Source: Candidatus Poribacteria bacterium
GTDB lineage: Bacteria > Poribacteria > WGA-4E > WGA-3G
DNA: 52,716 bases
Assembly (NCBI GenBank): GCA_012270795.1
Contig: JAAXHO010000151.1
Coordinates: 1-52,716, forward strand
Direction of reading: 5' to 3'
The stretch's first letter is position 1; each line of letters starts with the position of its first letter. Below, piece after piece: positions 191 through 50,493 of this stretch. Below the pieces are notes generated by a model that worked only from the letters and a program-made list of their open reading frames with translations, did not search any database and had not been told where the DNA came from. The translations under genes were made by a program, and so were the position numbers.

Positions 191-346
191 ATACCATTTC
201 TAAAATATAATTTCTCATTAGCTGCGGAGATCTGGTAGGAGCGACCTCCCGGTCGCGACCGGGAGGTCGCTCCTACCGAAGAGAGACCTCCAATCAGCGA
301 TAAAAGTGAAATACCTTAATGGGACAATATTAATTAGAATTGGTAT
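191..346. mobile_element. Miniature inverted-repeat element, copy 1 (REP-like hairpin core)
   Basis: A 156-bp element begins ATACCATTTCTAAAA and ends with the complement of ATACCAATTCTAATTA, so the ends are imperfect terminal inverted repeats. The flanks extend the symmetry to TATACCA/TGGTATA, which fits TA-targeting IS630/mariner-type insertion. The core at 234-277 is a perfect 44-bp palindrome with 22-bp arms beginning GGTAGGAGCGACCTCC. Related copies lie at 29587-29743 and 32841-32969. Elements with the same ends but other cores lie at 25587-25702 and 50344-50493. No ORF is present, so the element must be mobilised in trans. Confidence 0.8.
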
Positions 347-19988: not shown

Positions 19989-20044
19989 CTATGTTTTTCC
20001 AATTATGATGATCCTAATAGGTTTTCAAACTATTTCTGTAAAAC

Positions 20045-21559
20045 TTACATACCCTCAAAGAGATGTCTATAAATATCAGAAAGATTCAAAAGAGCCTCTG
20101 GATTATATGGTTTGTTAAACACTAATTTAGATAATTCTTTCTCAACCAAGTTTGTCCAATCATCCCAGGAGTTCTCTATCTGCTCACGCGTAACATCTAA
20201 ACATGTCCATAATTCCATGAAAACTTCAGGATTACGACGCAATAGAGAAGTGGCGCGTTTCGTTATATCGTAATCCTGAAAGAGAAAAGTCAATGGAATT
20301 ATGAACCAATATTCAGAACTTGTCTTCAAAGTGTCGGCTCTGCCTGCATTGATTACCTTTGCTAATTCATGGATATTGAGTGCCATGTAATACGCTACCA
20401 ATGAGGTTTGGTACTCTGATTCAGTCTCAAATATGGAAGGTAACCAATTCCATCTATTATAAGTATTAACCAAATAGTTCCAACTTTCAAGACTATTTCC
20501 GCCACGACTACCACTAATTGATAGGGCGTAACCTCTAAATTCACTCATTTCCCATAGGGGAAAGAATTTTGTCCCGAGAGTTTGTACTGCAACAGAAATT
20601 TTAATCTGTGCAAGACCCAGGGCAAGATCTATTTGTGATGTGCTCATACAGACGCATCCGTGAAGACTGTGATACACGTACCCTAAGGCATTCGGAAGTT
20701 GTATCCAAACTTCGTACCCTGCAGGATTCCATCCTACAATGTTCTGCAAGTCATCAATCAAGGATTTCTGATTCCGAAATTCTTCTCTGCTGGATTGGAC
20801 TCCCACTAATGCAACAGCCATTAAGGGGGATATAATCTCGACCGCTTTATCCACAACTTGAACAAATTGTTCTTTGCTTTTAGGTTCTTTTCCATCTAAT
20901 TCATCTTCCCGCCATTGCACCAAATTTTTGAATACTCTTGGTCTAATATCTTTGACAAGTTCTCTCCATCCGAGTACATCGCCTGCACGTGCGAGCTTAG
21001 TCGCTATCTCGTATGCCTCAGATGCAGATTCAACATGTTTTGGAATATCAACCAGTTGTGTGTCTAATCCAACAGAAGGGAACGGGCTTTTTCCTAAAAG
21101 GGGTTTTTGTACAATTGGCATTTTGTGTAGTTCATGAATTAATTTTTCGCATTCTGCATCAAATTGGCTATCATCTGTAAAGGCAGCATAAACTCTTGTG
21201 CCTAAAAATACGGGTGTTTTTTCTTTTCCTGATGCGTAACGGATGATAGGTATAAATTTGTCTGTTCCTAAATTTTGGACAAGTTCAGCGTTTACAATCA
21301 TCCGCTCATAGCCAACACCACCTTCATTTGCGTTTGCCTTACTCACGTATTTGTCTGTGCATATAACCAGCACCCTATCAGCGTCTACAATGCCACGTTC
21401 CATAAATCGTGTTATATCATCTCCGAGTCCAAGGTCCCACTGGTCAAGTATTGCATCAATTCCATTGTGGCGAAGTCGTGCTGCAAGTTCGGATACCCAC
21501 CGCTTATGCTCTGGAGAATCATGGGAATATGAAATAAATACTTTAGGGGGATTTGTCAT
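20045..21559 (-). CDS. SEFIR-domain protein with unknown helical C-terminal region
   Basis: This 504-residue protein opens with a SEFIR domain nearly identical to that of the next gene (FISYSHDSPEHKRWVSELA, DDITRFMERGI, YVSKANANEGGVGYE with Glu85). Residues about 150-504 show no family I recognise. The region looks mostly alpha-helical, contains no membrane segment and includes a cluster GCVCMSTSQ. In standalone bacterial SEFIR defence proteins such a region would be the sensor. It is the first gene of the cassette, with a good promoter (21579-21607). The close similarity of the two SEFIR domains but not of the rest points to domain duplication or exchange. It may respond to infection by consuming NAD; this is inference. 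Confidence 0.82.
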   Translation of the reverse strand: MTNPPKVFISYSHDSPEHKRWVSELAARLRHNGIDAILDQWDLGLGDDITRFMERGIVDADRVLVICTDKYVSKANANEGGVGYERMIVNAELVQNLGTDKFIPIIRYASGKEKTPVFLGTRVYAAFTDDSQFDAECEKLIHELHKMPIVQKPLLGKSPFPSVGLDTQLVDIPKHVESASEAYEIATKLARAGDVLGWRELVKDIRPRVFKNLVQWREDELDGKEPKSKEQFVQVVDKAVEIISPLMAVALVGVQSSREEFRNQKSLIDDLQNIVGWNPAGYEVWIQLPNALGYVYHSLHGCVCMSTSQIDLALGLAQIKISVAVQTLGTKFFPLWEMSEFRGYALSISGSRGGNSLESWNYLVNTYNRWNWLPSIFETESEYQTSLVAYYMALNIHELAKVINAGRADTLKTSSEYWFIIPLTFLFQDYDITKRATSLLRRNPEVFMELWTCLDVTREQIENSWDDWTNLVEKELSKLVFNKPYNPEALLNLSDIYRHLFEGM

Positions 21560-21578
21560 TTTTCATCTCTGTGTTAAA

Positions 21579-21607
21579 ATAATACCACATTTGGTTGGGA
21601 TATTCAA
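21579..21607 (-). promoter_or_regulatory. Promoter of the SEFIR cassette, overlapping the sulfatase stop
   Basis: On the minus strand TTGAAT, a 17-base spacer and TATTAT match sigma-70 consensus well. The predicted start is about 12-15 bases before the ATG at 21559, so the leader is very short. The -35 box includes the TGA stop of the upstream sulfatase (21604-21606). Confidence 0.6.
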
Positions 21608-21621
21608 CGTCCGGTAGATGG
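21581..21621. repeat. Direct repeat at the proximal end of the SEFIR cassette
   Basis: This 41-bp stretch is the partner of 17601-17642. It covers the last five codons and stop of the sulfatase gene (ACCGGACGTTGA on the minus strand) and the promoter of the SEFIR operon. The two copies are 3.9 kb apart and enclose exactly three genes. Confidence 0.65.
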
Positions 21622-23061
21622 ATTCTGTGGCCAGTGGAGTCCGCGCTGCCCAGATAAACTACGGTTTGCAGAGGGACGATACGGTTTGTCTGGTAGTCCA
21701 ACAAGTTCTCCGTTTTGTACCCACTTTTCATCGCCGCCATAGAGTTCTGCGATGAGTAGGTTGGTCAATCGCTTGAGGATTTCAGTATGCGCGGGTGAGT
21801 TGGATAGGTCATTCAACTCTCTGGGGTCCTCCTCCAAATCAAAGAGTTGTCGGTAGTTTCCCATAGCGTAGTAGATAAGTTTATAACGACCTTCATGGAT
21901 CATACGGGTGGCACTGCTACCACTACCGACTTCACCGTATAACCATTCACGTTTTTTGTCGCCTACCATGGGCGTGCCGTCAACTGTATCGGGTATATCA
22001 ATGCCAGTGAGATGGAGGAGTGTCGGCATGACATCTTGCCATCCGACGAGACGGTTGTCAACTCTGTTGTGTCCGACTCTTTCATCGCCTGCGGTGCCTA
22101 CGAGGAGCATTGGCACGTTAGTGGAGTCTTCATAGTAGAGTCGTTTTGCCCAAAGTTTATGGTTCCCGAGCATGTCGCCATGGTCGGATGTGAACAGTAT
22201 GATCGTATTGTTCAACAATCCTTCTTCGCGGAGTGTACCGACAACGACACGCAATTGATGGTCAATGTGCGTACAGAGTGCATAGAATGCTTGGCGTGCT
22301 GAACGGATTAGGTTTTCGCTGTATTGTGCACTCTGCATCTGTTTGGATTTGAGGGGTAAAGGTAGTTTACCAGAGTCTTTAGACCAATTTCCGTGATATG
22401 GCATTTCTATGTCAATATTGCGATACATGTCCATGTAGCATTGAAGGGGTGCTAAGGGTGGATGTGGATGGCAATAGGAGAGGAACCAGAAACCGGGGCG
22501 GGTTGGGTCGCGGCGTTTTATCTGACGCACCATCTGTTGTGTGCTCCAGTTGGTGACGTGGCAGTCTTCGGGGAGGTGCCAAGGACGGTTGAGATAATCG
22601 TTGTTGCACATACCGTGTGCAAACTGTTGCCCGGCGTAGCCTCTGTCGCCGAGGAAGAGTTCATAGTCGTCAATTACGCCATATTGTAATCTGCCTTCCT
22701 CACCTAATATCACATCGTCAAATCCGATTCGGTCGCGCTGCGGATAGACGTGCAGCTTGCCGACAGCGTGAGCCTGATATCCTGCATCGCGAAACGTCTG
22801 TGCAATGGTCGGCAGTCCATCTATTCCTTTTTTGTCGTTGAAAGTTCTGTCTTTGTGGGTGCGTGTTGTTGTGCCTGTCATCAATGTTTTTCGGGCAGGG
22901 ACACAAACAGGACATTCACTGTATCCGTTGGTAAATCGAGTGCCTGCGCGGGCGAGTGTGTCAAGGGTTGGGGTTTGGATGTCTGGATGTCCACTGACTC
23001 CGAGCAGTGAGTTGGGCCAGTGGTCTGTGCTAATTAGTAAGACATGCGGTTTGTCTGCCAT
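21604..23061 (-). CDS. Type I sulfatase (formylglycine-dependent)
   Basis: The 485-residue arylsulfatase-type enzyme hydrolyses a sulfate ester, probably on a glycan. The signature CVPARKTLMTG carries Cys53, which must be converted to formylglycine, in C-x-P-x-R form. N-terminal metal ligands lie in LLISTDHWP, and a second metal site lies in ILFTSDHGDMLGNHKLWAK. No signal peptide is seen, so a cytoplasmic role or an unusual export route is possible. The last codons lie in the repeat that borders the SEFIR cassette. It belongs to the same broad family as the sulfatase at 30327 but is not a close paralogue. A maturase was not found in the window. Confidence 0.93.
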   Translation of the reverse strand: MADKPHVLLISTDHWPNSLLGVSGHPDIQTPTLDTLARAGTRFTNGYSECPVCVPARKTLMTGTTTRTHKDRTFNDKKGIDGLPTIAQTFRDAGYQAHAVGKLHVYPQRDRIGFDDVILGEEGRLQYGVIDDYELFLGDRGYAGQQFAHGMCNNDYLNRPWHLPEDCHVTNWSTQQMVRQIKRRDPTRPGFWFLSYCHPHPPLAPLQCYMDMYRNIDIEMPYHGNWSKDSGKLPLPLKSKQMQSAQYSENLIRSARQAFYALCTHIDHQLRVVVGTLREEGLLNNTIILFTSDHGDMLGNHKLWAKRLYYEDSTNVPMLLVGTAGDERVGHNRVDNRLVGWQDVMPTLLHLTGIDIPDTVDGTPMVGDKKREWLYGEVGSGSSATRMIHEGRYKLIYYAMGNYRQLFDLEEDPRELNDLSNSPAHTEILKRLTNLLIAELYGGDEKWVQNGELVGLPDKPYRPSANRSLSGQRGLHWPQNPSTGR

Positions 23062-23177
23062 TGGGATGTTTTCCTTCCTATCACAGCAATGTGTTTTTAT
23101 TCATCTTATCAAATGCTGTTGCAATTGGCAAGGAAAAAAGGGTGTGCATACATTTTCGCAAATATGTTTTAAACTTG

Positions 23178-25762
23178 TTATTCTGTTGCAAGGTATTTTG
23201 GGTGGGGAGTGATATTCTCTGGATAGTTGACTTTCCATATCTGTATAGTTGGGTGTGTGCCTTTTTCATAAGTTGGAACAGTGAGGACGTTTTCAAAGAC
23301 ATTAGAATGCTCTCCACGCATAAAGAGTTTTACAGCGAGACTATTCCATCCGATCTCTGGGGTGTAAAAGCTGCTACGGAGTACCTTGTCCTTGTCAAAA
23401 AGGAAAATGAGTCCTCCCCTCCCTGTATCTATCCTTTGATTGGATAAGATTCGTTTGTCTCCATAAAACGCCACGTAAGGGAGTTGGATGGGTTCTTCCT
23501 CTTTTTCAAACCTTGCATTGATAGAAAGGTTTTCAAGGTCTGTGCCGATAACATCAATTCTGCTTAAAGTAGTTGTATGTGTAAACGGTGGAGTTTGCTT
23601 TATTTCAGGTTCAAGTGAGTATTGTGTTTCTGGGGAAGTCGGTTGCGGGAGTAAGTGAAAGAGTGAAAAGTACCTGTCCAGGTATGCATCGCTGCCGACA
23701 TAGGAGTTATCAATGGCGTTGGGGACGAGCTCTACACTGGTTATCATCAGATACGTTGCCCCGTGTGTTTTTAAAAAAATAGTGCCTCTGTCTCGGATTG
23801 CGCACAAAACACATGTCGAAAGTAGAGATGTACCCAGTGGGGTAGGTAATGATCTGAGTCTGTGATGGTTTTCACGTTTGCAAGAACGTTGATTTTTATA
23901 CCATAAGTCCAGTGTGCGGCCATAACAGTCGTATCGTGTGGTAGTTCGTTTTTTATCCATTGGTATGCTTGTATTTGTTTTCCTGGTCCAGGTATCGCGT
24001 CACGTTTTGCAGCAGCTTGGAGTGTCCCAGTTGCGTAACCTCCCGCGGGGCCCCAATACAGAATCAGTAATAGTATTCCCGCAGTGAGCCCGACGGTGAT
24101 GTATTTTTGATGAAGCGTTCTCCCCAGAAGTTGGATAGGTATCTGTTTCGTGGTTCGGAACGTGGTGATATGCTTCAGGAGGACAGCAGCACCAATTGCC
24201 AACGGTAATCCGACAAAGAATACGTATCTTATACCAGTGCGTGTGAAACTACCCCAAAGAAAACACCAAACGAGAAGTATTATCAAATCCAGTTCATATT
24301 GTTGCTTTTGTTGTTGACGTATGAGTGCTATTCCGAAACCGATGACAGTGAGTGCAAACGCAGCGATAAAGATATAGTGTTCTCCGATTGAACCTATCCA
24401 GTTATTTAGAGGTTCCCGGAGAAAAGTCGTTGTGCAGAATAGGACAAGTCCAATTGCAAGAGGCAGCGCGTGCCATTTCCAACGGTAGGCTGCAGCAGCG
24501 ATGAGACCGATACTGCCTAAAATGAATAGACTACCGTATCTGTCTACCCAATCTATGAGCCCGGGGTTTTCAAGTTCACTTACCGTTTTCATCAAGCGAC
24601 TTTCCATGAAAGGGAAGGCAGTTGCGGCGAAGGTATTATATTGTCCAATCACATAGATTCCTCCTAATGTTATGCCGAACAGAGTAAGTCCCCGGGCAAG
24701 TTGACGTGCATAGGGTCGGAGTTGTTTAACGAAACGGAGGAGCAGATATCTTATGCTTTTGAGCATGAAAAGCACGAGAGGCGGTGCCAGCATGAGCGGT
24801 CCAACGTGTGTTGAAAAGCCGTATCCGCTGCGGTACGCAGGACTCAAAAGATATAGCCACGGAACAAACATAAACAACCAGAGTCCGTATTCCTTTATAT
24901 CTTGCTCAGTATCGGTGGTGCAGAACTTCCATATCTCTGCACTAAGGATAATCAGAACAGATATTCCAAATGCTTCCCAACTCAGTCCGCCGAGGAAAAC
25001 GACAAAACCGCAGAGGGCAGTTGCAAGGTATTTGGTTCGTCCGGATTCCATTCGTTCTTTGTGTAGATATATGACGATGGCGAAGATAGCGAGCATCCAG
25101 CACCATGCATCTCTGTCACTAAAGCCAGCAGTACTACGAGCAATCACTCCAGGGAAGGTTGCAAGTAGTACACCAACGACCGTAGCAAATAGGTGCCCAT
25201 AGGACTTGATGAGAAAAAGCAACAAAGCGGTGAGGCCAAGCATAAAACAGATCACAGGTGCATACAGTTGCACATGATAAAGCGTCACCTGATGATAGAA
25301 AAGTGTTATCGCTTTGTGTGTATAAGCGAGGGCGTAAGCATAGAAAGAAAGGAACTGCTGATTATCTCTGCCGTTTGGCAGCCATCGGTGCATGTCACGA
25401 TCGGGAAGGTGTCCTTGCTTGCTGATGGTTTGTGCCTGTGAGTAAAAGACGTAGGCATCGTTTGAAGAAAACTGCCCTTCGGGTATGTCTTCTACGCCTT
25501 GAATACGTATCAAGAATGTGAGAGACAAAATACTGAGTAAAAGGACACCCGTGCTGAGTTGACGTAATACAGTAGGATTGCTGGTTATACCAATTCTATT
25601 TGAGAACCCCCCTTTATCCCCCCGCAAGCGAGGGGAGATGGAGTTCTTCTGATAAGGAGTTCTTCCAATTAGCAATGAGATATTATCATTTAGAAATGGT
25701 ATTATCTTTTTCCAAAGACGTTGCCAAAAGATGTGATGTGTAGATTGTTTATCAGTATCCAT
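23178..25762 (-). pseudogene. STT3-like oligosaccharyltransferase, interrupted at a T7 tract
   Basis: This large polytopic protein resembles STT3/AglB/PglB. Asp102 in SSNDAYVFYSQA matches the first catalytic Asp loop, FSDRDAWCWML gives the second acidic motif, and AHWTYGIKINVLANVKTITDSDH is a WWDYG-type region. About a dozen membrane segments lie between residues 70 and 590. The frame stops at 23771-23773 right after a T7 run (23773-23779). The -1 frame continues smoothly (FLKTHGATYLMITSVE ...) as a soluble domain to 23178. One missing T restores about 861 residues. The site TTTTTTTA is also a potential slippery heptamer. Residues 21-59 derive from a miniature element at 25587-25702. ATG 25762 follows the GspC-like gene by 17 bases. 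Likely role: transfer of a lipid-linked glycan to Asn of exported proteins. Confidence 0.8.
25587..25702. mobile_element. Miniature inverted-repeat element inserted in frame in the STT3-like gene
   Basis: A 116-bp element starts ATACCAATTCTATTT and ends with the complement of ATACCATTTCTAAATGATAA, matching the ends of the elements at 191 and 29587. Its core, GAACCCCCCTTTATCCCC...GGGG, is different. It is open in the host gene's frame and encodes ISPRLRGDKGGFSNRIGI among 39 extra residues. The coding gain is a multiple of three (117 bases), so the insertion kept the frame. Confidence 0.75.
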
Positions 25763-25779
25763 ACAGTGTCTACTTTCCA

Positions 25780-26463
25780 CTAACGATTTTGGTGCTGCTG
25801 TAGATATTCCATCATACGTTTTCGTTCTGCGCATATCTTGGAAGCTTTTTCTTCAAGTTGTTTTCGCCATTCACTTGCAGCACTTATCTTTTGTGATGGT
25901 GTAGTGGGCTTGTCTGTTGTTCCGCTTTTTGCAGGTGACGCATTTGTGGTACGTGGTGTGGTGTAATCTTGTCGCGGTGGCATGCTCTGATTACTTCGAT
26001 AATTAAGAAAATTACTATTGCTCATAGCAAGCGTCAACGACTTACCGTTTTGTGTGAGCGTCACCCGCTTAGGCGTAATGGTTTTGACGGTCATCTCGCC
26101 AACTTGCTGTCCGACAGAAACAGCATAAAAACGGTTTGATTCGCGCTCTTGAATATATGCTGTAGCGGTACTGCCATCCGCAGCTATCGCGGTGCCGAGT
26201 AGTGTATAAGCAGATTCGCGCTGTGGTGGTTTCCAGTTGAGCAGTCTGAAGATGTTATTGTCAATAATCGTTTGATAGAACGCATCAGGATCAACTTGTT
26301 GTGTATTGGTCTGTTTTGAAAGACGCGCTCGTTTTTCATCCCGCTTTACAGGTGCAGCCTCAGCAGGCACATTGGGAGATGCATCAGGTTTCCAGAATAA
26401 CCGTACCCCTCCGTAAATACACACTATGGAAACAATAAAGGTGAATATCAGGATGGACCTCAT
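25780..26463 (-). CDS. GspC/PilP-like inner-membrane protein
   Basis: The 227-residue protein has one N-terminal membrane anchor (ILIFTFIVSIVCIYGGVRLF). A disordered stretch follows, then a GspC homology-region-like beta domain (about 62-150: FYQTIIDNNIFRLLNWKPP ... YTLLGTAIA ... GQQVGEMTVKTITPKRVTL). The tail is polar with many Gln and Lys. In type II secretion GspC links the inner-membrane platform to the secretin. Here no other Gsp genes are adjacent, and a paralogue occurs at 52139. The gene begins with ATG overlapping the expected end of the upstream proline-rich gene as ATGA, once a one-base lesion there is corrected. It is 17 bases upstream of the STT3-like gene, so the three form an operon. 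Confidence 0.7.
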   Translation of the reverse strand: MRSILIFTFIVSIVCIYGGVRLFWKPDASPNVPAEAAPVKRDEKRARLSKQTNTQQVDPDAFYQTIIDNNIFRLLNWKPPQRESAYTLLGTAIAADGSTATAYIQERESNRFYAVSVGQQVGEMTVKTITPKRVTLTQNGKSLTLAMSNSNFLNYRSNQSMPPRQDYTTPRTTNASPAKSGTTDKPTTPSQKISAASEWRKQLEEKASKICAERKRMMEYLQQHQNR

Positions 26464-27829
26464 TGCTCCGATGGTGTATTATTCGGGGGGCAGGACGTTC
26501 TAGTGGACGTGGTGGTGCCATTTCTTTACCTATTTTGCGGATCGCTTCCAGTTCTTTGATCACCTCTTGTAATGCCTTAAGGTCTTTCGGCAAATCTCCA
26601 CCGTGTAGGAGTATCAATTCCTCAAACCATTCTTGGACCTGTTCTGGACTGGGCGGTTTTGGTGGTAGTGGCGGCTGCCTGTTTTTCCCAACCTGCGGCG
26701 GTAATTTCCGCTGTACATCTGGTTGCTGCGCCTTGTCGGGAGGGGACTCAACTTCGTGTGGATGCGGGCGGTCGTGTTGTGTGTCCACTACGATGGGTTT
26801 TGTTTCCTGCTGGGTCTCGTTTTCTGGTTGGTTAAAAAGTGCGTCATGATCAGCTATCATTTTTTCAATATGTTTTTCTGCCCTATCAAGACCTTCCATC
26901 GCGCGCTCGTAGAAACGAGGTTTATGATCTGCAGTTAATGGCATCCCATTTTTATCGGTATAGATAACTTTCATTCCCCGAGGAGGAATACCGAACACTG
27001 TTAATGCGGTTTCTTCCTCAGCTGTGAGTTTTGCACCCGTAATCTGTGAAAACGGTTTATCATCGGACACGTGTACGTACACAGTATTTTCCTTAAACGG
27101 TGTCAAAACACCTTGTCCGACATCGCTTATATTAAAGACCCCACCAGCAAATGACTCTGGATCCGCTTGGTATTCACGTTCAAAAGCGAGTTCGGCAATT
27201 ACCCTATGTTTCATATAAAGGTCTTCACCCTCTTCCCATGTTGCTTCTGGCGGAAGGCCGACTCTATCATGAAGTGATGCCGTGGGGTTCTCAGAATCAT
27301 GAGAAATTTTCAAGCCTCTACGAGTTGATAGCGCATTCTGATAGTGACCGACGCGCAAGAAAGGATACCCTAAATCCATGAGACGTTGCAACCATTTGTC
27401 ACGATTGCGAAAATTATCTAATTCTTTCGTTGCTTCGGGACGCGGAACGAACCAGTGATTTTTCCATTTCTCATGCATTTCCTCAAGTGTGTAAGGTTGA
27501 AATTCCTCTCTTATCGCTTCAAGATCCAGGTTTGACCAGATGCGTTGAATAGCATTCTCTTTCATATAGTCTTTCGTATCGGTATTTTTCGCCACATTGC
27601 TACTTGTTGTTTTCTCAGTGGATACTTCTGACTCCGGTGTATCATAGGTATGGATATGCTCAACAATTTCACCGGAAGGGGCCACATGTTGATGTGGTTT
27701 AGATTCGGGTATGCGGGTAAGACGTTCAAGATATGCAAGATAACTACGTTTTTGATGTGAAACAATCACAAAGGTAACACCTACAGCCACAACAACTGTC
27801 AACGCAACAACAATCAATCGTTTTTTCAT
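26384..27829 (-). CDS. Membrane-anchored proline-rich protein of unknown function, frameshifted end
   Basis: The protein has an N-terminal membrane segment (LIVVALTVVVAVGVTFVIV). A soluble domain of about 250 residues follows, with no family I recognise (WSNLDLEAIREEFQPYTLEEMH, LMDLGYPFLRVGHYQNAL), then a Pro/Gln-rich linker (about 345-410) and a short helical part. As read, the end overlaps the GspC-like gene by 80 bases with an implausible tail (IIHHRSNEVHPDI). Adding one C to the C6 run at 26485-26490 gives PNNTPSEQ and a stop at 26460-26462, leaving a normal ATGA overlap, so a one-base loss is likely. GGAG precedes ATG 27829. Context with GspC-like and STT3-like genes suggests an envelope role. 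Confidence 0.65.
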   Translation of the reverse strand: MKKRLIVVALTVVVAVGVTFVIVSHQKRSYLAYLERLTRIPESKPHQHVAPSGEIVEHIHTYDTPESEVSTEKTTSSNVAKNTDTKDYMKENAIQRIWSNLDLEAIREEFQPYTLEEMHEKWKNHWFVPRPEATKELDNFRNRDKWLQRLMDLGYPFLRVGHYQNALSTRRGLKISHDSENPTASLHDRVGLPPEATWEEGEDLYMKHRVIAELAFEREYQADPESFAGGVFNISDVGQGVLTPFKENTVYVHVSDDKPFSQITGAKLTAEEETALTVFGIPPRGMKVIYTDKNGMPLTADHKPRFYERAMEGLDRAEKHIEKMIADHDALFNQPENETQQETKPIVVDTQHDRPHPHEVESPPDKAQQPDVQRKLPPQVGKNRQPPLPPKPPSPEQVQEWFEELILLHGGDLPKDLKALQEVIKELEAIRKIGKEMAPPRPLERPAPRIIHHRSNEVHPDIHLYCFHSVYLRRGTVILET

Positions 27830-27883
27830 CTGTTATGCTCCTTATGAAATGATAAAGTCTATTTGATCATATTATTACTTTGA

Positions 27884-28013
27884 CAGGACTTACGCATTTT
27901 TCTTAAAGTCCCTCTGATAAGGGAAAAGGTTCCTAAAGCGATAGCGTCCGAGGGTTAAATCTCTGAAATAACGACTTTTTAACCCCCTTACCAAGAGGGA
28001 GTGGGTAAGTCCT
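27884..28013. mobile_element. Miniature inverted-repeat element, CAGGACTTAC family
   Basis: A 130-bp element is bounded by CAGGACTTAC and its complement GTAAGTCCTG. Inside, AAAGTCCCTCTGATAAGGG and CCCCCTTACCAAGAGGGA provide further complementarity. It lies between the minus-strand genes at 26384-27829 and 28089-29120. A longer, decayed relative is at 29217-29565. It carries no ORF. Confidence 0.6.
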
Positions 28014-28088
28014 GACTTTAAAATAACAAAATTAATAAATGCTGTCTTGAGAATCAGACCTGGAAAAAAACGGAGACACTCGGGACAA

Positions 28089-29120
28089 CTAAAAGTTCGT
28101 AACACCTGCCACCCGAAGATGTAGATGTTTTCCTGAATACCTGGATCCAGCCGGACACAAAGTTTTCTTATACCAGTAAGAGGCTGTGATTTCGCTATGT
28201 CTGGCATCATCTACATTTCCATAAACTTTAGCTGTTTTGGTTTGTAATTTAATTTCAGGACTACTATTAGCTGTCCACCAACCACCAATTGATGCCTTTA
28301 TTCCGAAGCCGCGTCCTTTCGTATTCCAAAAAGATCTTCCCCACTCCCATTTCCAGTCATGGGTGAAACTGGCTTCAGCACCTTTAGCAGAACCTCCTAC
28401 GCCAACACCAATAGAACCTGTTCTCTTTTCTGTTACATTTACTCTATGAACAAGTATCTTAATTTCCGACTCTTGCGCTGGTTTCCAATAGTATTCGTCG
28501 GTTTTCCGATTTATACAGGGAGAATCATAATAGAAAAAAACCATGATTGCATGGTAGGAAAGCGCAGGACTATCCAATGTTATTTTTCCTTGTCCTTGAA
28601 AAGGTAAAGGGTCATCTGAACTCTCAATTGATAATGACTCCGGTTCTTCTATTTTGGGATCTAAGCGTGCAGATGCACCTGAAGCCGATGCGGAAGCAGA
28701 CGTTTCAAGTACAATCGTGTAAATTTGTTGTTTATAAGTGGATGTGTGGTTACGACTGTTAGGATTCTCTTTGTGTCCTTTAGGATTGGAGACTTTTCCA
28801 CCTCTATAGCACCATGCACGATGATTGAAGTATTCTGCCCCGTTCGTGCCACAAATAAATTTTGTAAAATTTTTATCCCGCGGATCTCGATCCGTCCCAA
28901 TTAATGAATTAAGATATCGTGAACGTTCTGGTTCTCTAATAGGCACATTGGGCGGGGTTTCAAGTTCGCCATATAGATCGGACGTACGATCTGGATTAAT
29001 CCATATAGAAGGTTGATGGGTTGAAGGTTCGCCTCCAAATCCAATTGGTGTCTGCGCCATAAAAACAACAGACATCACAAAAGCCAATAAAATTACCAAT
29101 TGTATCAACTTGAATTTCAT
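28089..29120 (-). CDS. Secreted protein of unknown function
   Basis: The 343-residue protein has a GGAG site and a signal peptide (LIQLVILLAFVMSVVFMAQ). I do not recognise its family. Visible features are an N-terminal stretch with paired Cys (FICGTNGAEYFNHRAWCYRGG), a low-complexity SASASASGASA segment (about 143-153), a Gly-rich amphipathic block (GSIGVGVGGSAKGAEASF) and a Trp-rich block (HDWKWEWGRSFWN). Alternating Gly/aromatic residues suggest beta structure, perhaps a membrane-inserting or adhesive strand region. It stands alone between miniature elements. A pore-forming or surface role is only a guess. Confidence 0.55.
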   Translation of the reverse strand: MKFKLIQLVILLAFVMSVVFMAQTPIGFGGEPSTHQPSIWINPDRTSDLYGELETPPNVPIREPERSRYLNSLIGTDRDPRDKNFTKFICGTNGAEYFNHRAWCYRGGKVSNPKGHKENPNSRNHTSTYKQQIYTIVLETSASASASGASARLDPKIEEPESLSIESSDDPLPFQGQGKITLDSPALSYHAIMVFFYYDSPCINRKTDEYYWKPAQESEIKILVHRVNVTEKRTGSIGVGVGGSAKGAEASFTHDWKWEWGRSFWNTKGRGFGIKASIGGWWTANSSPEIKLQTKTAKVYGNVDDARHSEITASYWYKKTLCPAGSRYSGKHLHLRVAGVTNF

Positions 29121-29216
29121 TTTTTTTCTCCTTGTGCCACTCAGTTGTGGCGTTCAGATGTAGTTTACACATACATCCTATTATCAATTATATTTCAAAA
29201 CCATCAAATTTTTCAA

Positions 29217-29565
29217 GACAGATGCATTTTCTCTTTAAGTCCCTTGATAAAAGGGGTAAAAAGACTAAAAAACACTGAAATATCGCACTATTTAATCTCC
29301 TCAAGGGAGAATGCGCCCATTCTGAATGATAAAGGTTATGTTAACATTCCGGGGTTGATGTGCGTTTTACTACACGTTCACACCCATAGCAACTTAATGA
29401 AAAATGTGGAACAGATTCAGGGTTCGGTAGGAATCTGTTCAACTAATATATATAAAAGTGTCGGTTCCTTGCATTTTGCCGATGCTCAGATCCGTCGCAT
29501 TTGGGATAATAACTAAAATAACAACTTTTTAACCCCCCTTAACCAAAGGGGAATGCGTAAGTCCT
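29217..29565. mobile_element. Decayed, longer relative of the CAGGACTTAC element
   Basis: The left part (GCATTTTCTCTTTAAGTCCC) and right part (CTTTTTAACCCCCC ... GCGTAAGTCCT) match the element at 27884-28013, but about 200 extra bases separate them. The interior includes a 52-codon open stretch ending LHFADAQIRRIWDNN at 29514. I recognise no family in it; it could be captured gene debris. Confidence 0.4.
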
Positions 29566-29586
29566 ATTTTAAGCGATTTTAACCTA

Positions 29587-29743
29587 ATACCAATTCAAAT
29601 TAATATTGTGTCATTTAGGAATTCATAAGTTCTTTGCAGATGAAAGACCTTTCTTTTGTGGGAGCAACTTCACGGTCGCGACCAGGAGGTCGCTCCTACC
29701 AGAACATTTTGACAAATGGCATCTTATTTTTTAGAAATGGTAT
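29587..29743. mobile_element. Miniature inverted-repeat element, copy 2 (REP-like hairpin core)
   Basis: A 157-bp element starts ATACCAATTCAAATTA and ends with the complement of ATACCATTTCTAAAA. The core (about 29658-29702) is an imperfect GTGGGAGCAACTTC...GAGGTCGCTCCTACC palindrome. It is collinear with the copy at 191-346 in reverse orientation, sharing AATATTG(T)GTCATT next to the end. Confidence 0.75.
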
Positions 29744-29914
29744 AAATTGCACTAAGTGTCAAATTAATTTTTAAGAAAAATCACAAATTTTGCATAATTT
29801 CCACAATTTTTTCTTAAAATTATACGCAACGTTCAATTTTTGTTAATTTTTTCAGGATTATTTTAGGTTTTGCTGTTGTATTCTTTACATTTCAAAATAA
29901 ATCATCTGTAGGTC

Positions 29915-30086
29915 GGTAGAGCGTTAGCGAAACCTATAAGTGTAAACTTAAGATAATGAAACTCTTGTTGGAGGGGTTTCTAACCCCGATTTTATGCCGT
30001 TCCCCTCTGCTATCGGGGTTAGAAACCCCTCCAACAATATATAAGGCTCTTAAGTTTACACTTATAGGTTTCGCTAACGCTCTACC
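29915..30086. repeat. Nested perfect palindromes
   Basis: The outer arms (29915-29952 and 30049-30086) are 38-bp perfect inverted repeats beginning GGTAGAGCGTTAGCGAAACC. They enclose a second perfect pair with 26-bp arms (29965-29990 and 30012-30037) beginning TTGTTGGAGGGGTTTC. Single arms of both occur elsewhere (351-398 and 7660-7685). The structure looks like one hairpin repeat inserted in another. No gene is present from 29121 to 30326. Confidence 0.75.
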
Positions 30087-30090
30087 CAAA

Positions 30091-30130
30091 ATCAACGGTA
30101 TGAATGCCATTAGGCATTCCCCGCCTACGA
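30091..30130. repeat. Dispersed 40-bp repeat
   Basis: The stretch starts ATCAACGGTATGAATGC and ends CCCCGCCTACGA. A near-identical copy lies at 39572-39612, where it adjoins a GGTAT element end. AATGCCATTAGGCATT inside is palindromic. Confidence 0.6.
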
Positions 30131-30326
30131 TATAAACTATTAGTAATACAAATAAACGGAAAACTCTTAAAACTAAATAACAACCAAAATCTCTTTTTGT
30201 AAATTATACACAAAAATTCGAGTTTTGTTAATTTTTTGTCAGGGGTGTGCAAATCTCCCTTGACACACATAAGAAAATACAATAAAATGTGAAGTAGGAA
30301 TTACAAAATGAGAGGAAAACAGGAAT

Positions 30327-31688
30327 ATGCCCCAAACTGACGCAAAGCAACCGAATGTCATTGTCTTTTTCACAGACCAACAACGGTGGGACACTTCAGG
30401 ACTGCACGGGAATCCATTGGACTTAACACCCAATTTCGACCGGATGGCACAACAAGGCACGCATGTTCGTAGATCTTTTACCTGTCAACCTGTATGCGGT
30501 CCGGCGCGTTCATGCCTTCAAACAGGACTATACGCTACAACAACAGGATGTTATCGTAACGGAATACCATTATCACCTGACCTAAAAACACTTGCACATC
30601 ATTTCGGTGATGCCGGCTATAAGACCGGTTATATCGGTAAATGGCACCTTCATAGTGGTAGCACAGGACCTGTTCCAGAGGAGCATCGCGGCGGCTATGA
30701 TTATTGGTTAGCCTCTAATGTGCTGGAAATGACTTCTGATGCTTACCAAACAAGGTTATTCAATAACGACAATCAACCTGTTGACCTACCTGGCTATCGT
30801 GTTGATGCCGTAACAGATGCGGTTATACGTTATGTAGACCAACAGAAAAACGATCCTTTCTATCTCTTTACATCATATATTGAACCCCACCATCAGAACC
30901 ATTTAGATGACTATCCGCCACCTGATGGATATAGGGAAAGGTATACGGGTAAATGGATACCACCTGATCTCGCCGCGCTGGGAGGCTCAACACACCAGCA
31001 CTTAGGCGGCTACTACGGTATGGTGAAGAGACTTGACGAAGCACTTGGTAGATTGTTAGATGCACTCAGAAGCCTGAGTCTACTTGAAAATACCATTATC
31101 CTATTTACTTCTGACCACGGTTGTCATTTCAAAACGCGCAACAGTGAATACAAACGCTCATGCCACGAAAGCTCAATACGCGTACCTACTGCCCTATACG
31201 GGGGCGATTTCATCGGAGGCGGACAGATACAGCAACTTGTGAGTCTTGTTGATCTACCACCCACACTACTGGATGCTGCGGGTATTGCAGTGCCTGATGA
31301 AATGCAAGGTCGGTCAATTCTGCCGCTTATACAAGGAGGTACAGATGATTGGGAGGAAGAGGTATTTGTCCAAATTAGTGAAGCACAAGTTGGGCGAGCT
31401 GTACGCACACAGCGATGGAAATACTGTGTTGATGCCCCAAAAAATAGCGGTAGAAGTGGTGCTGGGTCTGATGTCTACGAGGAACAATACCTTTATGACC
31501 TACAAGCAGACCCTTATGAGTTGCGGAATCTCATAGGAAACAAATCCCATGAAAATGTCGCACAGACGATGCGGGAACGACTCATACGACGAATGGTAGA
31601 TGCAGGAGAAGATGCCCCCACTATAGAACCCGCACCACAAAAAGGCAGTGGACAACGCCGCGTAACAGATGAGGAAGCAAAAAGTTAA
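30327..31688 (+). CDS. Type I sulfatase (formylglycine-dependent)
   Basis: This 453-residue sulfatase has the maturation motif CGPARSCLQTG with Cys57 (C-x-P-x-R form), N-terminal metal ligands in VIVFFTDQQRW, and a second metal site in IILFTSDHGCHFKTRNSEYKR. There is no signal peptide. It is followed after two bases by an enolase-superfamily dehydratase gene, so desulfation and sugar-acid dehydration are probably coupled in one catabolic operon. The start is supported by AGGA close upstream. The substrate is unknown; sulfated glycans or sugar acids are likely. Confidence 0.93.
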   Translation: MPQTDAKQPNVIVFFTDQQRWDTSGLHGNPLDLTPNFDRMAQQGTHVRRSFTCQPVCGPARSCLQTGLYATTTGCYRNGIPLSPDLKTLAHHFGDAGYKTGYIGKWHLHSGSTGPVPEEHRGGYDYWLASNVLEMTSDAYQTRLFNNDNQPVDLPGYRVDAVTDAVIRYVDQQKNDPFYLFTSYIEPHHQNHLDDYPPPDGYRERYTGKWIPPDLAALGGSTHQHLGGYYGMVKRLDEALGRLLDALRSLSLLENTIILFTSDHGCHFKTRNSEYKRSCHESSIRVPTALYGGDFIGGGQIQQLVSLVDLPPTLLDAAGIAVPDEMQGRSILPLIQGGTDDWEEEVFVQISEAQVGRAVRTQRWKYCVDAPKNSGRSGAGSDVYEEQYLYDLQADPYELRNLIGNKSHENVAQTMRERLIRRMVDAGEDAPTIEPAPQKGSGQRRVTDEEAKS

Positions 31689-31690
31689 AC

Positions 31691-32836
31691 ATGAAAATCA
31701 CAGATGTCATTACCCTTGTTATGGGAACAAGTTGGCGGAATTTAACCTTTGTAAAAGTTGAAACAGATGAAGGTGTTACAGGTATCAGTGAAGTTCGTAT
31801 GAACAACCGTACCGACGCACTTGTTTCTTATATTGACGGCGCAAAACGTAGACACGTTATTGGAAGCGATCCTTTCAACACAGAAGACCTATACCAACGT
31901 TTGTTTCGTGATGATTACGGACGCGCTGGGGAAATTGTCGCCACGGGTATAAGCGTGATAGAAATCGCTTGCTGGGATATAATTGGTAAGGTCTTGAATC
32001 AGCCTGTGTATCGTCTACTTGGCGGTGCTTGTCGTGACAAAATTAAAGCTTATGCAAATGGTTGGTATCGCGTCGAACGGACCCCCGAAGAATTTCACGA
32101 TGCTGCCAAAAAAGTGCTGGAAAAGGGGTATAAAGCACTTAAGTTTGACCCCTTTGGTGCAGGTTATTATGAACTCTCATACCAAGAAAAACTAAAATCT
32201 GTTTCACTTGTAGAGGCAGTCCGCGATGCTGTGGGACCTGATGTGGAAATCTTGGTCGAAATGCACGGGCGATTTAGCCCCTACACTGCGATTGAGATAG
32301 CCGCAGAATTGGAACAATTCCAACCGAGCTGGGTTGAAGAACCGGTCCCTCCCGATAACATCGCTGCCCTTGCAAAGGCTGCTGACAAAATCAAGCTGCC
32401 AGTCGCAACAGGTGAACGTTTACACAACAAGTACGAATATCGCGAACTGATCAACTTACAGGCAGCAGACATACTACAACCCGATATTACACAGACAGGC
32501 GGATTTTTGGAAACAAAGAAAATCGCTGCGATGGGGGATATGTGTTATATGACAGTCGCACCCCATAACGTCGGCGGACCGGTTTCTACTGCAACCGCAC
32601 TGCACTTTGCCGCATGCACAACAAATTTCAAAATTCAGGAGCATTTCAACGATTTTTCTGAAGCGTGGGTTAAAGAAGCTGCTACAGGTTGTCCAGAGGT
32701 AATTGACGGATATTTCAGTTTACCCAACGGCCCTGGGATCGGTATGGAACTCAATGAAGATCTCATTGCACAACACCCATACCGTGAAGGTTCATTCAAC
32801 CTCTGGGAAGACGATTGGCATAAACGAGAGTATTAG
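31691..32836 (+). CDS. Mandelate racemase/muconate lactonizing family dehydratase (enolase superfamily)
   Basis: The 381-residue protein has all enolase-superfamily landmarks. A KFDPFG base segment (Lys151, Asp153) is present, metal ligands lie at Glu190 (LVEMHGRFSP), Glu216/Glu217 (VEEPVPPDN) and Glu242 (TGERLHNKYEY), and a His292 base sits in VAPHNVGGP with Asp265 behind it. The pattern is that of sugar-acid dehydratases such as galactonate or gluconate dehydratases. It lies two bases after the sulfatase stop, without its own clear ribosome-binding site, so translation is probably coupled. A miniature element abuts the stop codon. Confidence 0.9.
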   Translation: MKITDVITLVMGTSWRNLTFVKVETDEGVTGISEVRMNNRTDALVSYIDGAKRRHVIGSDPFNTEDLYQRLFRDDYGRAGEIVATGISVIEIACWDIIGKVLNQPVYRLLGGACRDKIKAYANGWYRVERTPEEFHDAAKKVLEKGYKALKFDPFGAGYYELSYQEKLKSVSLVEAVRDAVGPDVEILVEMHGRFSPYTAIEIAAELEQFQPSWVEEPVPPDNIAALAKAADKIKLPVATGERLHNKYEYRELINLQAADILQPDITQTGGFLETKKIAAMGDMCYMTVAPHNVGGPVSTATALHFAACTTNFKIQEHFNDFSEAWVKEAATGCPEVIDGYFSLPNGPGIGMELNEDLIAQHPYREGSFNLWEDDWHKREY

Positions 32837-32840
32837 TTTA

Positions 32841-32969
32841 TAAGGAAGTCCACTTTTATTGCTGATTGGAGGTCCTCTCTTCGGTAGGAGCGACCTCCTG
32901 GTCACGACCGGGAGGTCGCTCCTACCGGAACCCCGCTTCTAATGAGACATAATATATTAGAAATGGTAT
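32841..32969. mobile_element. Miniature inverted-repeat element, copy 3 (left end lost)
   Basis: The right end is the complement of ATACCATTTCTAATAT. The core at 32883-32926 is the GGTAGGAGCGACC palindrome. The flank TTTATTGCTGATTGGAGG matches the copy at 191-346. The left terminal repeat is absent; the element begins five bases after the dehydratase stop codon. Confidence 0.7.
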
Positions 32970-32984
32970 TACAACCTTACATGA

Positions 32985-34250
<1,266 letters not shown>

Positions 34251-39622: not shown

Positions 39623-40682
39623 TATAACCGCTCTTCCAAAAACACAATCCCAGGATCCAAATTAATCTCATGTTCCCCTTGAAAATGATCCAAGACCAAT
39701 TGATCTCGTTCTCCGCAAGCAGTATATATCTTTTCAAGATGCTCGAACGCCTCCAACGCATCAGACTCAATAAAGCATCGGTCATCAGAACCGATTTGCA
39801 CCATACACGAACGCGGCGCGATTAGTCCTGCAACATCAGCAATGTCTCCCGCTGCACGTAACCCAAACATGAACTGTGACCCACACGTATTAGCCCGCCC
39901 ACGGTCACCTAACGCATCTGTCAAGGTGCTGAGATAACAGACAATGACTGCAGCCTTTACACGTCTGTCGAATGCTGATATATAGGTTGTCATCGTACCA
40001 CCAAACGAGCATCCCATACATCCTAAACGACTGCTATCCACTTCAGGGCGCGACTGAAGATAGTCCAAACACCGCTGTCCATCTGAAATGTTGAGTTGTA
40101 GCAATTGATAGCCAAAATACCCAAGTGCAAAATACGCAGCATCACAACCATCTCTACCTGGTCGGCGAGCCCACTCATCTCTGTCAAGTCGTTCACCGAA
40201 ACATCGCCAATCCGGTGCCATCGTTATAAACTCGCGTTTTGCCAATTCCACAGCTCCGGTGCCATCGTTATAAACTCGCGTTTTGCCAATTCCACAGCAT
40301 ATTGTTTCTGATAGTCCTCTACAATACCGACTGCACCGTCTTTACCGACACCATGACCATGTGCACATAGTACCGCAGGTGCCGGGTTCTCCGCACTTGC
40401 ACTATCTGGTATTAAAACATAAGCTGGAATTGAGGAAAAAGCATCAGGATTGAAAATAATCTTTTCTCTTGTGTATCCAACTTGTTGTGTCCTTTCTAAG
40501 GTTTCTACTTCCAACGGAAGGGGGACAGGTCTTGGTCCAAGCTGGTGCCGCATGTGCGGTCTGAATTGCTTACGTCACTCTCGCCATTCCCTTTTCGTTG
40601 TACCGTTGAAATGTTGTGGCGGTGTCGTTTTCAGAAGTTGTTGTACACTCTGTTCCGCTGTCAAAAATCTCTCTATTGCCAT
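39622..40682 (-). pseudogene. Alpha/beta hydrolase (dienelactone hydrolase/acetyl xylan esterase type), doubly disrupted
   Basis: The restored gene starts at ATG 40680-40682 (MAIERFLTAEQSVQQLL), continues to an in-frame TGA at 40575-40577 (EWRE*RKQFRPHM, where Trp would fit), and then gives the hydrolase core: AYVLIPD, VLCAHGHGVGKDG, and the nucleophile elbow GCMGCSFGGTMT. Near the middle a perfect 44-base tandem duplication (40212-40297) repeats VELAKREFITMAP and shifts the frame. The end (QLVLDHFQGEHEIN) carries the catalytic His. Such enzymes cleave esters, often acetyl groups on glycans. With two lesions it is the clearest pseudogene here, unless both are assembly errors. Confidence 0.8.
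40212..40297. repeat. 44-bp tandem duplication within the hydrolase gene
   Basis: Bases 40212-40255 are repeated from 40256, with at least 40 bases identical (CCGGTGCCATCGTTATAAAC and onward). Because 44 is not a multiple of three, the duplication shifts the reading frame of the hydrolase. Confidence 0.9.
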
Positions 40683-50343: not shown

Positions 50344-50493
50344 ATACCATTTTTACTTTATAATATATCATTTCCGTAGGTCGGGTAGAGCGAAGCGAAA
50401 CCCGACAGGTGTTGATTGTGGTTATCCTGTCGGGTTTCGCTTCGCTCTACCCGACCTACGGAAGAATGGAATAAAAATAATTAAAATTGGTAT
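50344..50493. mobile_element. Miniature inverted-repeat element with a different hairpin core
   Basis: The 150-bp element starts ATACCATTTTTACTT and ends with the complement of ATACCAATTTTAATTA, the same ends as the copies at 191 and 29587. The core is a perfect palindrome with 36-bp arms (50374-50409, 50426-50461) beginning CCGTAGGTCGGGTAGAGCG. Its sequence differs from the GGTAGGAGCGACC core. Confidence 0.8.

What the first reader, a model, noticed from the sequence alone, without database searches (positions are those of the whole stretch)
25587..25702. Miniature element domesticated as coding sequence in an oligosaccharyltransferase
The whole element is translated in the STT3-like protein, adding 39 residues (ISPRLRGDKGGFSNRIGI and neighbours) between the cytoplasmic N-terminus and the first membrane helix. 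The net gain of 117 bases preserves the frame.
Basis: partly seen in the sequence, partly recalled or inferred. Interest (0 to 1): 0.58.

Follow-up and report, generated by a model that had tools for sequence, protein, structure and literature searches.

The report
Mobile element translated inside membrane protein
A 114-base mobile DNA element has jumped into the start of a membrane-protein gene in a Poribacteria genome without breaking the reading frame, adding 39 amino acids to a tail that seems to tolerate them; a sister copy did the same in a second gene, but nothing shows that the cell makes use of the extra piece.

Summary
At 25588-25701 lies a 114-bp miniature inverted-repeat element (TIR TACCAWTTCTA, 3-bp T-N-A target duplication, here TTA), one of several hundred such ends in this Candidatus Poribacteria genome. 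It sits in frame in a PF02516 (STT3-like) gene on the minus strand. The orthologous locus in relatives G004 and G016 is empty; element plus duplicated TTA adds exactly 117 bp, 39 residues, between ATG 25762 and the first membrane helix. No ATG/GTG/TTG lies between element and helix.

A sibling copy (94% identical) is fused in the same orientation and frame into the signal-peptide n-region of a secreted lamin-tail-domain protein; homologues lack it. These are the only two of 81 sampled copies in long ORFs with a Pfam match.

'Domesticated' is not supported: no relative shares the insertion, 7 of 8 codon differences between the two coding copies are nonsynonymous, and the segment is predicted disordered. 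Best reading: a recent insertion tolerated because the element offers one stop-free, net-basic frame suited to a variable cytoplasmic tail. A one-base frameshift (T7 run) before the C-terminal domain leaves activity uncertain. In-frame MITE insertions are a known kind (Rickettsia RPEs, ERIC, QMITE).

The parts
25588..25701 (-). MITE-like element, 114 bp, read as coding sequence on the minus strand (39 residues with the duplicated target)
25588..25598 (.). terminal inverted repeat TACCAATTCTA
25691..25701 (.). terminal inverted repeat TAGAAATGGTA
25585..25587 (.). target duplication TTA, one copy
   Evidence: empty site in G016 and G004
25702..25704 (.). target duplication TTA, other copy
25607..25635 (.). 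internal C-rich core shared with three other inverted-repeat element families of the genome
23771..25762 (-). STT3-like gene (PF02516), from the preferred ATG to the premature TAA; 663 codons
25760..25762 (-). preferred start codon ATG; position conserved in G016 and (other frame) in G004
25773..25778 (-). GGAAAG, Shine-Dalgarno-like, 10 nt before the ATG
   Evidence: read; motif assignment is inference
25499..25558 (-). first hydrophobic (membrane) segment, codons 69-88 from ATG 25762
   Evidence: hydropathy; helix 63-87
23773..23779 (-). T7 run (A7 on +) where the reading frame is one base short relative to homologues
23178..23778 (-). C-terminal domain continuing in the -1 frame, conserved with G004 (72% identity, dN/dS 0.125)
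25780..26463 (-). upstream gene (PF11356-like), 66% identical to the gene upstream of the empty site in G004: orthologous locus

Best explanation
A short non-autonomous inverted-repeat element (MITE) transposed into the 5' end of an STT3-like gene, duplicating a TTA. Because element plus duplication is 117 bp and the element has one stop-free sense frame in that phase, the gene stays open and would make a protein with 39 extra residues in its cytoplasmic tail. The insertion was tolerated, not recruited: the tail before the first helix is variable and dispensable, and the added peptide is hydrophilic, disordered and net positive, which suits the cytoplasmic side of a first membrane helix. Shown: element, target duplication, empty sites, frame, sibling case. 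Inferred: translation in the cell, topological neutrality, absence of a function.
For: TIR and TNA duplication in many copies. Empty orthologous sites in G004 and G016 with conserved upstream gene and start. Frame and start codons. Tails before the IRxQ motif: median 25, maximum 55 residues over 36 rows from the 52 loci, against 84 here; G004 uses a different start and lacks the first 20 residues in frame. Segment 20-62 has pLDDT below 50 (model mean only 59.5). K+R 6, D+E 2. Sibling copy at C278:18596-18727, in frame after codon 6 of a 793-aa protein with GGAGG before its ATG; the G013 homologue MKNYVFLLVTLLL... has the empty site. Host gene not long dead: dN/dS 0.187 and 0.125 before and after the frameshift, no faster change than G004 with G016 as outgroup (52 vs 49 and 14 vs 20).
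Against: No expression or proteomic data. The gene has a premature stop from a one-base frameshift, so it may be inactive and the question of translation moot. The window branch is somewhat faster when own paralogue C147 is the outgroup (67 vs 47, chi2 3.51). No cognate transposase was found.
Confidence: 0.78

Rival explanations
1. The gene is a young pseudogene: the frameshift removes the C-terminal domain, and the in-frame element is simply one of several lesions, so nothing is tolerated or translated to effect.
For: One base short in a T7 run relative to homologues, followed by a stop. A second STT3 paralogue of the same genome (C147) has a one-base frameshift about 20 codons earlier. The genome holds many matches to this protein (17), so loss may be cheap.
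Against: The 194 codons after the frameshift are as conserved as the rest, with no further stop; no rate acceleration against G016. Both indels are in homopolymers, which also fits sequencing or assembly error or slippage.
Confidence: 0.2
2. Domestication: the element-derived peptide has been recruited for a function, for example setting membrane topology or a contact of the cytoplasmic tail.
For: Two sibling copies in the same frame and orientation ahead of a hydrophobic export or membrane segment, both net basic.
Against: Single-genome insertion; 7 of 8 codon differences nonsynonymous; homologues with tails a third as long; predicted disordered.
Confidence: 0.07
3. Translation starts downstream, leaving most of the element as untranslated leader.
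For: TTG codons in frame at 25675 and 25627 inside the element; the latter would give a tail of natural length (compare).
Against: No Shine-Dalgarno-like sequence seen before either TTG; ATG 25762 is conserved in place with GGAAAG upstream. No ATG/GTG/TTG between element and helix, so part would be translated anyway. In the sibling gene a GGAGG before the ATG marks the start clearly.
Confidence: 0.07

Closest known systems
Rickettsia palindromic elements (RPE); review PMC10969869 (passages read)
   Same: Short repeats of about 100-150 bp found in frame inside protein-coding genes, with one frame that is translated.
   Different: RPEs do it often (per the review, nearly half of the RPEs in R. 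conorii); here 2 of 81 sampled copies. Here TIRs and a TNA duplication mark a transposon-type MITE. Sequence relation to RPEs was not tested.
ERIC / RU-1, RU-2 elements fused to enterobacterial ORFs; PMC2759123 (abstract, sections 16 and 20 read)
   Same: MITE-like repeat forming the first residues of a predicted exported protein (YPO1552) and parts of membrane proteins; closest precedent for the sibling case.
   Different: In YPO1552 the repeat supplies part of the signal peptide itself; here the native hydrophobic segment is kept and the element is inserted before it, with the empty site seen in relatives.
QMITE1/QMITE2 of Coxiella burnetii; PMC5896051 (passages read)
   Same: MITEs adding residues in frame to genes.
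   Different: The examples in the passages read give C-terminal residues (enhC, pntAA) or lie mid-ORF; here an N-terminal tail.
IS5 family, IS1031-type transposons (recalled)
   Same: TNA 3-bp target duplication.
   Different: No PF01609, PF13340 or PF13359 gene in this genome; no IS with these ends found.

Membership tests
MITE | terminal inverted repeats | tested here: met
   TACCAATTCTA / TACCATTTCTA
MITE | target-site duplication of fixed length | tested here: met
   identical TNA on both sides in 12 of 15 perfect-TIR copies and 69 of 81 in the census, whose rule favours matching duplications for copies with more than one TIR mismatch; empty sites confirm it at two loci
MITE | many copies, no transposase inside | tested here: met
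   27 perfect copies, 81 in 83 stretches, lengths 100-295 bp
MITE | cognate autonomous transposon with the same ends | tested here: inconclusive
   none found with three transposase families; other families not tried
Rickettsia palindromic elements | in-frame insertion within coding genes | tested here: met
   window and C278 copies
Rickettsia palindromic elements | high share of copies inside genes | tested here: not met
   2 of 81
Rickettsia palindromic elements | sequence membership in an RPE family | not tested
   no RPE sequence was compared
IS5/IS1031-derived element | TNA target duplication | tested here: met
   that IS1031 duplicates TNA is recalled
IS5/IS1031-derived element | IS5-type transposase with the same ends | tested here: inconclusive
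   absent from G000; 30 loci around transposase hits in relatives show no matching pair of ends with a common duplication
STT3 oligosaccharyltransferase | Pfam STT3 membrane domain | tested here: met
   37.7 bits, cut-off 24.5
STT3 oligosaccharyltransferase | C-terminal domain in the same frame | tested here: not met
   out of frame after 23773-23779
STT3 oligosaccharyltransferase | glycosyl transfer activity | not testable with these tools
   -

The most novel reading that the evidence does not exclude
One subfamily of this MITE acts as a portable cytoplasmic-tail cassette: its single open sense frame encodes a net-basic disordered peptide that is repeatedly accepted just before signal peptides and first membrane helices, a Poribacteria counterpart of the Rickettsia palindromic elements. 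2 of the 8 core-bearing copies but 0 of the 73 others in the census lie in such ORFs; the split was made after seeing the data.
Probability: 0.15. Interest if true: 0.55.

Novelty: new member of a known kind. Interest (0 to 1): 0.36.

Why it matters
Clean cases of a transposon translated inside a bacterial protein, with the empty site, target duplication and a sibling case all visible, are few outside Rickettsia and enterobacteria as far as I know. The pair suggests a simple rule for which insertions into genes survive: right phase, open frame, and a charge that suits the cytoplasmic side of a membrane segment. It also matters for annotation, since gene callers would list these residues as native protein.

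Tried and rejected
Domestication was tested by codon differences, spread among relatives, tail length and predicted disorder, and was not supported. Starts downstream of the element were looked for and not found. Parent transposon: PF01609 in G000, PF13340 and PF13359 in 21 genomes, TIR scan of 30 loci and end inspection; one apparent end pair in L265 turned out to lie inside transposase coding sequence. One search fetched further IS copies that I did not analyse. One search fetched two stretches (L247, L248) that I did not use. Open frames among the 81 elements: 27 with at least one, against 17.7 (sd 3.9) in base-composition shuffles: a weak excess that I do not rely on. Three other copies lie in open frames of 118, 154 and 102 codons (C137, C147, C284); I took them for chance frames without a database check. 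Rfam on 20000-34000: nothing. Papers on Poribacteria with 'MITE' (4 papers, listing only, none in point) and on Poribacteria repeats (listing only, none of the 10 listed papers holds the word Poribacteria). One search (MITE + signal peptide + in-frame): listing only.

Full report
Setting. The window is contig C141 of a 5.18-Mb, 298-contig genome; named relatives of the STT3-like protein are all Poribacteria MAGs (52 of 52 loci). The gene lies on the minus strand; Pfam finds STT3 (PF02516) above its cut-off.

The element. 25588-25701 is bounded by TACCAATTCTA and TAGAAATGGTA with TTA on each side. In this genome 27 copies have perfect 12-base ends and are 102-144 bp long. At up to one mismatch the 14-base end pattern occurs 230+236 times against 7+1 for the reversed control; exact TNATACCAWTTCTA occurs 171+179 times against 0+0, and it occurs in all 17 other members of the genus searched. 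Of 15 copies with perfect ends, 12 carry identical TNA duplications. In a census of 83 stretches I accepted 81 elements, 69 with identical duplications (40 TTA, 28 TAA, 1 TCA); copies with more than one end mismatch were accepted only with matching duplications. The stretches were picked around end or core matches and are not the whole genome. It is therefore a MITE by structure; its transposase was not found.

Empty site. The gene upstream is 66% identical to the gene upstream of the homologue in G004, so the loci correspond. The G016 homologue reads ...CTTTGGAAAAAGATAAACAGCAATCCC; the window reads ...CTTTGGAAAAAGATAA-[element]-TAACCAGCAATCCT. Taking away element and one TAA restores the alignment: 117 bp, 39 codons. 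In G004 the same tail is out of frame by one base and a different ATG serves, so the first 20 residues look dispensable.

Is it translated? ATG 25762 is conserved in place, with GGAAAG upstream. In frame after the element there is no ATG, GTG or TTG until TTG 25528 inside the first membrane segment; TTG 25675 and 25627 are inside the element. Any start from those three kinds of codon before the helix thus includes all or part of the element. No expression data exist here.

A second case. The closest copy in the genome, C278:18596-18727 (94% over 112 bp), is fused in the same orientation and frame: MKNRAL-[45 residues]-ILVTLLLISALIPLQRSIA..., in a 793-residue ORF with GGAGG before its ATG and a lamin-tail domain. 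It carries the TTA duplication and an extra 18-bp partial repeat of its left end. The homologue in G013 starts MKNYVFLLVTLLLMCALIPLQRANA with the same spacing and no insert; the full-length homologues at the top of the listing match only from residue 46 on or later. Of the 81 census elements only these two lie in long ORFs (693 and 794 codons open) with a Pfam match; three others lie in open frames of 102-154 codons that I took for chance. A search with the peptide over 59 genomes (own included) matched 9, and no listed match outside this genome lies in an open frame longer than 177 codons.

Recruited or tolerated? Between the two coding copies 8 of 38 codons differ, 7 nonsynonymously. No listed homologue shares the window insertion. 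Over 36 rows the stretch from first ATG to the IRxQ motif has median 25 and maximum 55 residues, against 84 here. AlphaFold puts residues 20-62 below pLDDT 50, with helix from 63 to 87, but the whole model is weak (mean 59.5). The inserted peptides carry 6 and 7 K/R against 2 and 3 D/E, which is compatible with the positive-inside rule (general knowledge). This fits tolerance in a free cytoplasmic tail; nothing calls for a function.

State of the gene. In homologues the sequence after the W-x-Y-G motif continues with EALYFLKTH or the like; here the run is one T short and TAA follows. The following 194 codons, in the other frame, keep 72% identity and dN/dS 0.125; the part before has 0.187. Relative-rate counts with G016 as outgroup are even (52 vs 49; 14 vs 20), with paralogue C147 67 vs 47. 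Paralogue C147 has its own one-base frameshift nearby. Recent loss, slippage, or sequence error all remain possible.

Known kind. Reviews and papers report MITEs and palindromic repeats in frame in genes: RPEs in Rickettsia (PMC10969869, passages; PMC3733652, passages), ERIC/RU elements including one at the start of an exported protein (PMC2759123, abstract and two sections), QMITE in Coxiella (PMC5896051, passages). This is a new, well-documented member of that kind in another phylum. My searches showed no such report for Poribacteria, in an open-access library only.

Noticed in passing
window 23771-23779: T7 run (A7 on +) one base short relative to homologues; STT3-like ORF stops there while the C-terminal domain continues conserved in the -1 frame (ORF 23178-23960).
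   Followed up: yes
L061 (C147:61783-64200): A second STT3 paralogue of the same genome also has a one-base frameshift, about 20 codons earlier, with conserved sequence continuing in another frame.
   Followed up: partly
window 25607-25635; L008-L030: The C-rich core CCCCCCTTTATCCCCCCGCAAGCGAGGGG also sits in the middle of three other inverted-repeat element families with unrelated ends (TATAGTAGAATC..., AACGTGAGTTCGGT, CAGGACTTACGCA); in turn the TACCAWTTCTA family carries several different hairpin cores. Ends and cores look mixed and matched.
   Followed up: partly
L025, L026 (C115:35818 and 36857): Two core copies 1 kb apart share the right flank; the lower one has a left half like the CAGGACTTACGCA family: hybrid by recombination at the core, or misassembly.
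   Followed up: no
window 192-345, 29588-29742, 50345-50492: Further elements with the same ends; the first two are 154-155 bp and carry GGTAGGAGCGACC...GGTCGCGACC hairpins.
   Followed up: no
window 40211-40298: Perfect 44-bp tandem duplication; not a multiple of three.
   Followed up: no
window 27958-27987 and 29508-29537: Another dispersed repeat (ending AACGACTTTTTAACCCCC) beside these genes.
   Followed up: no
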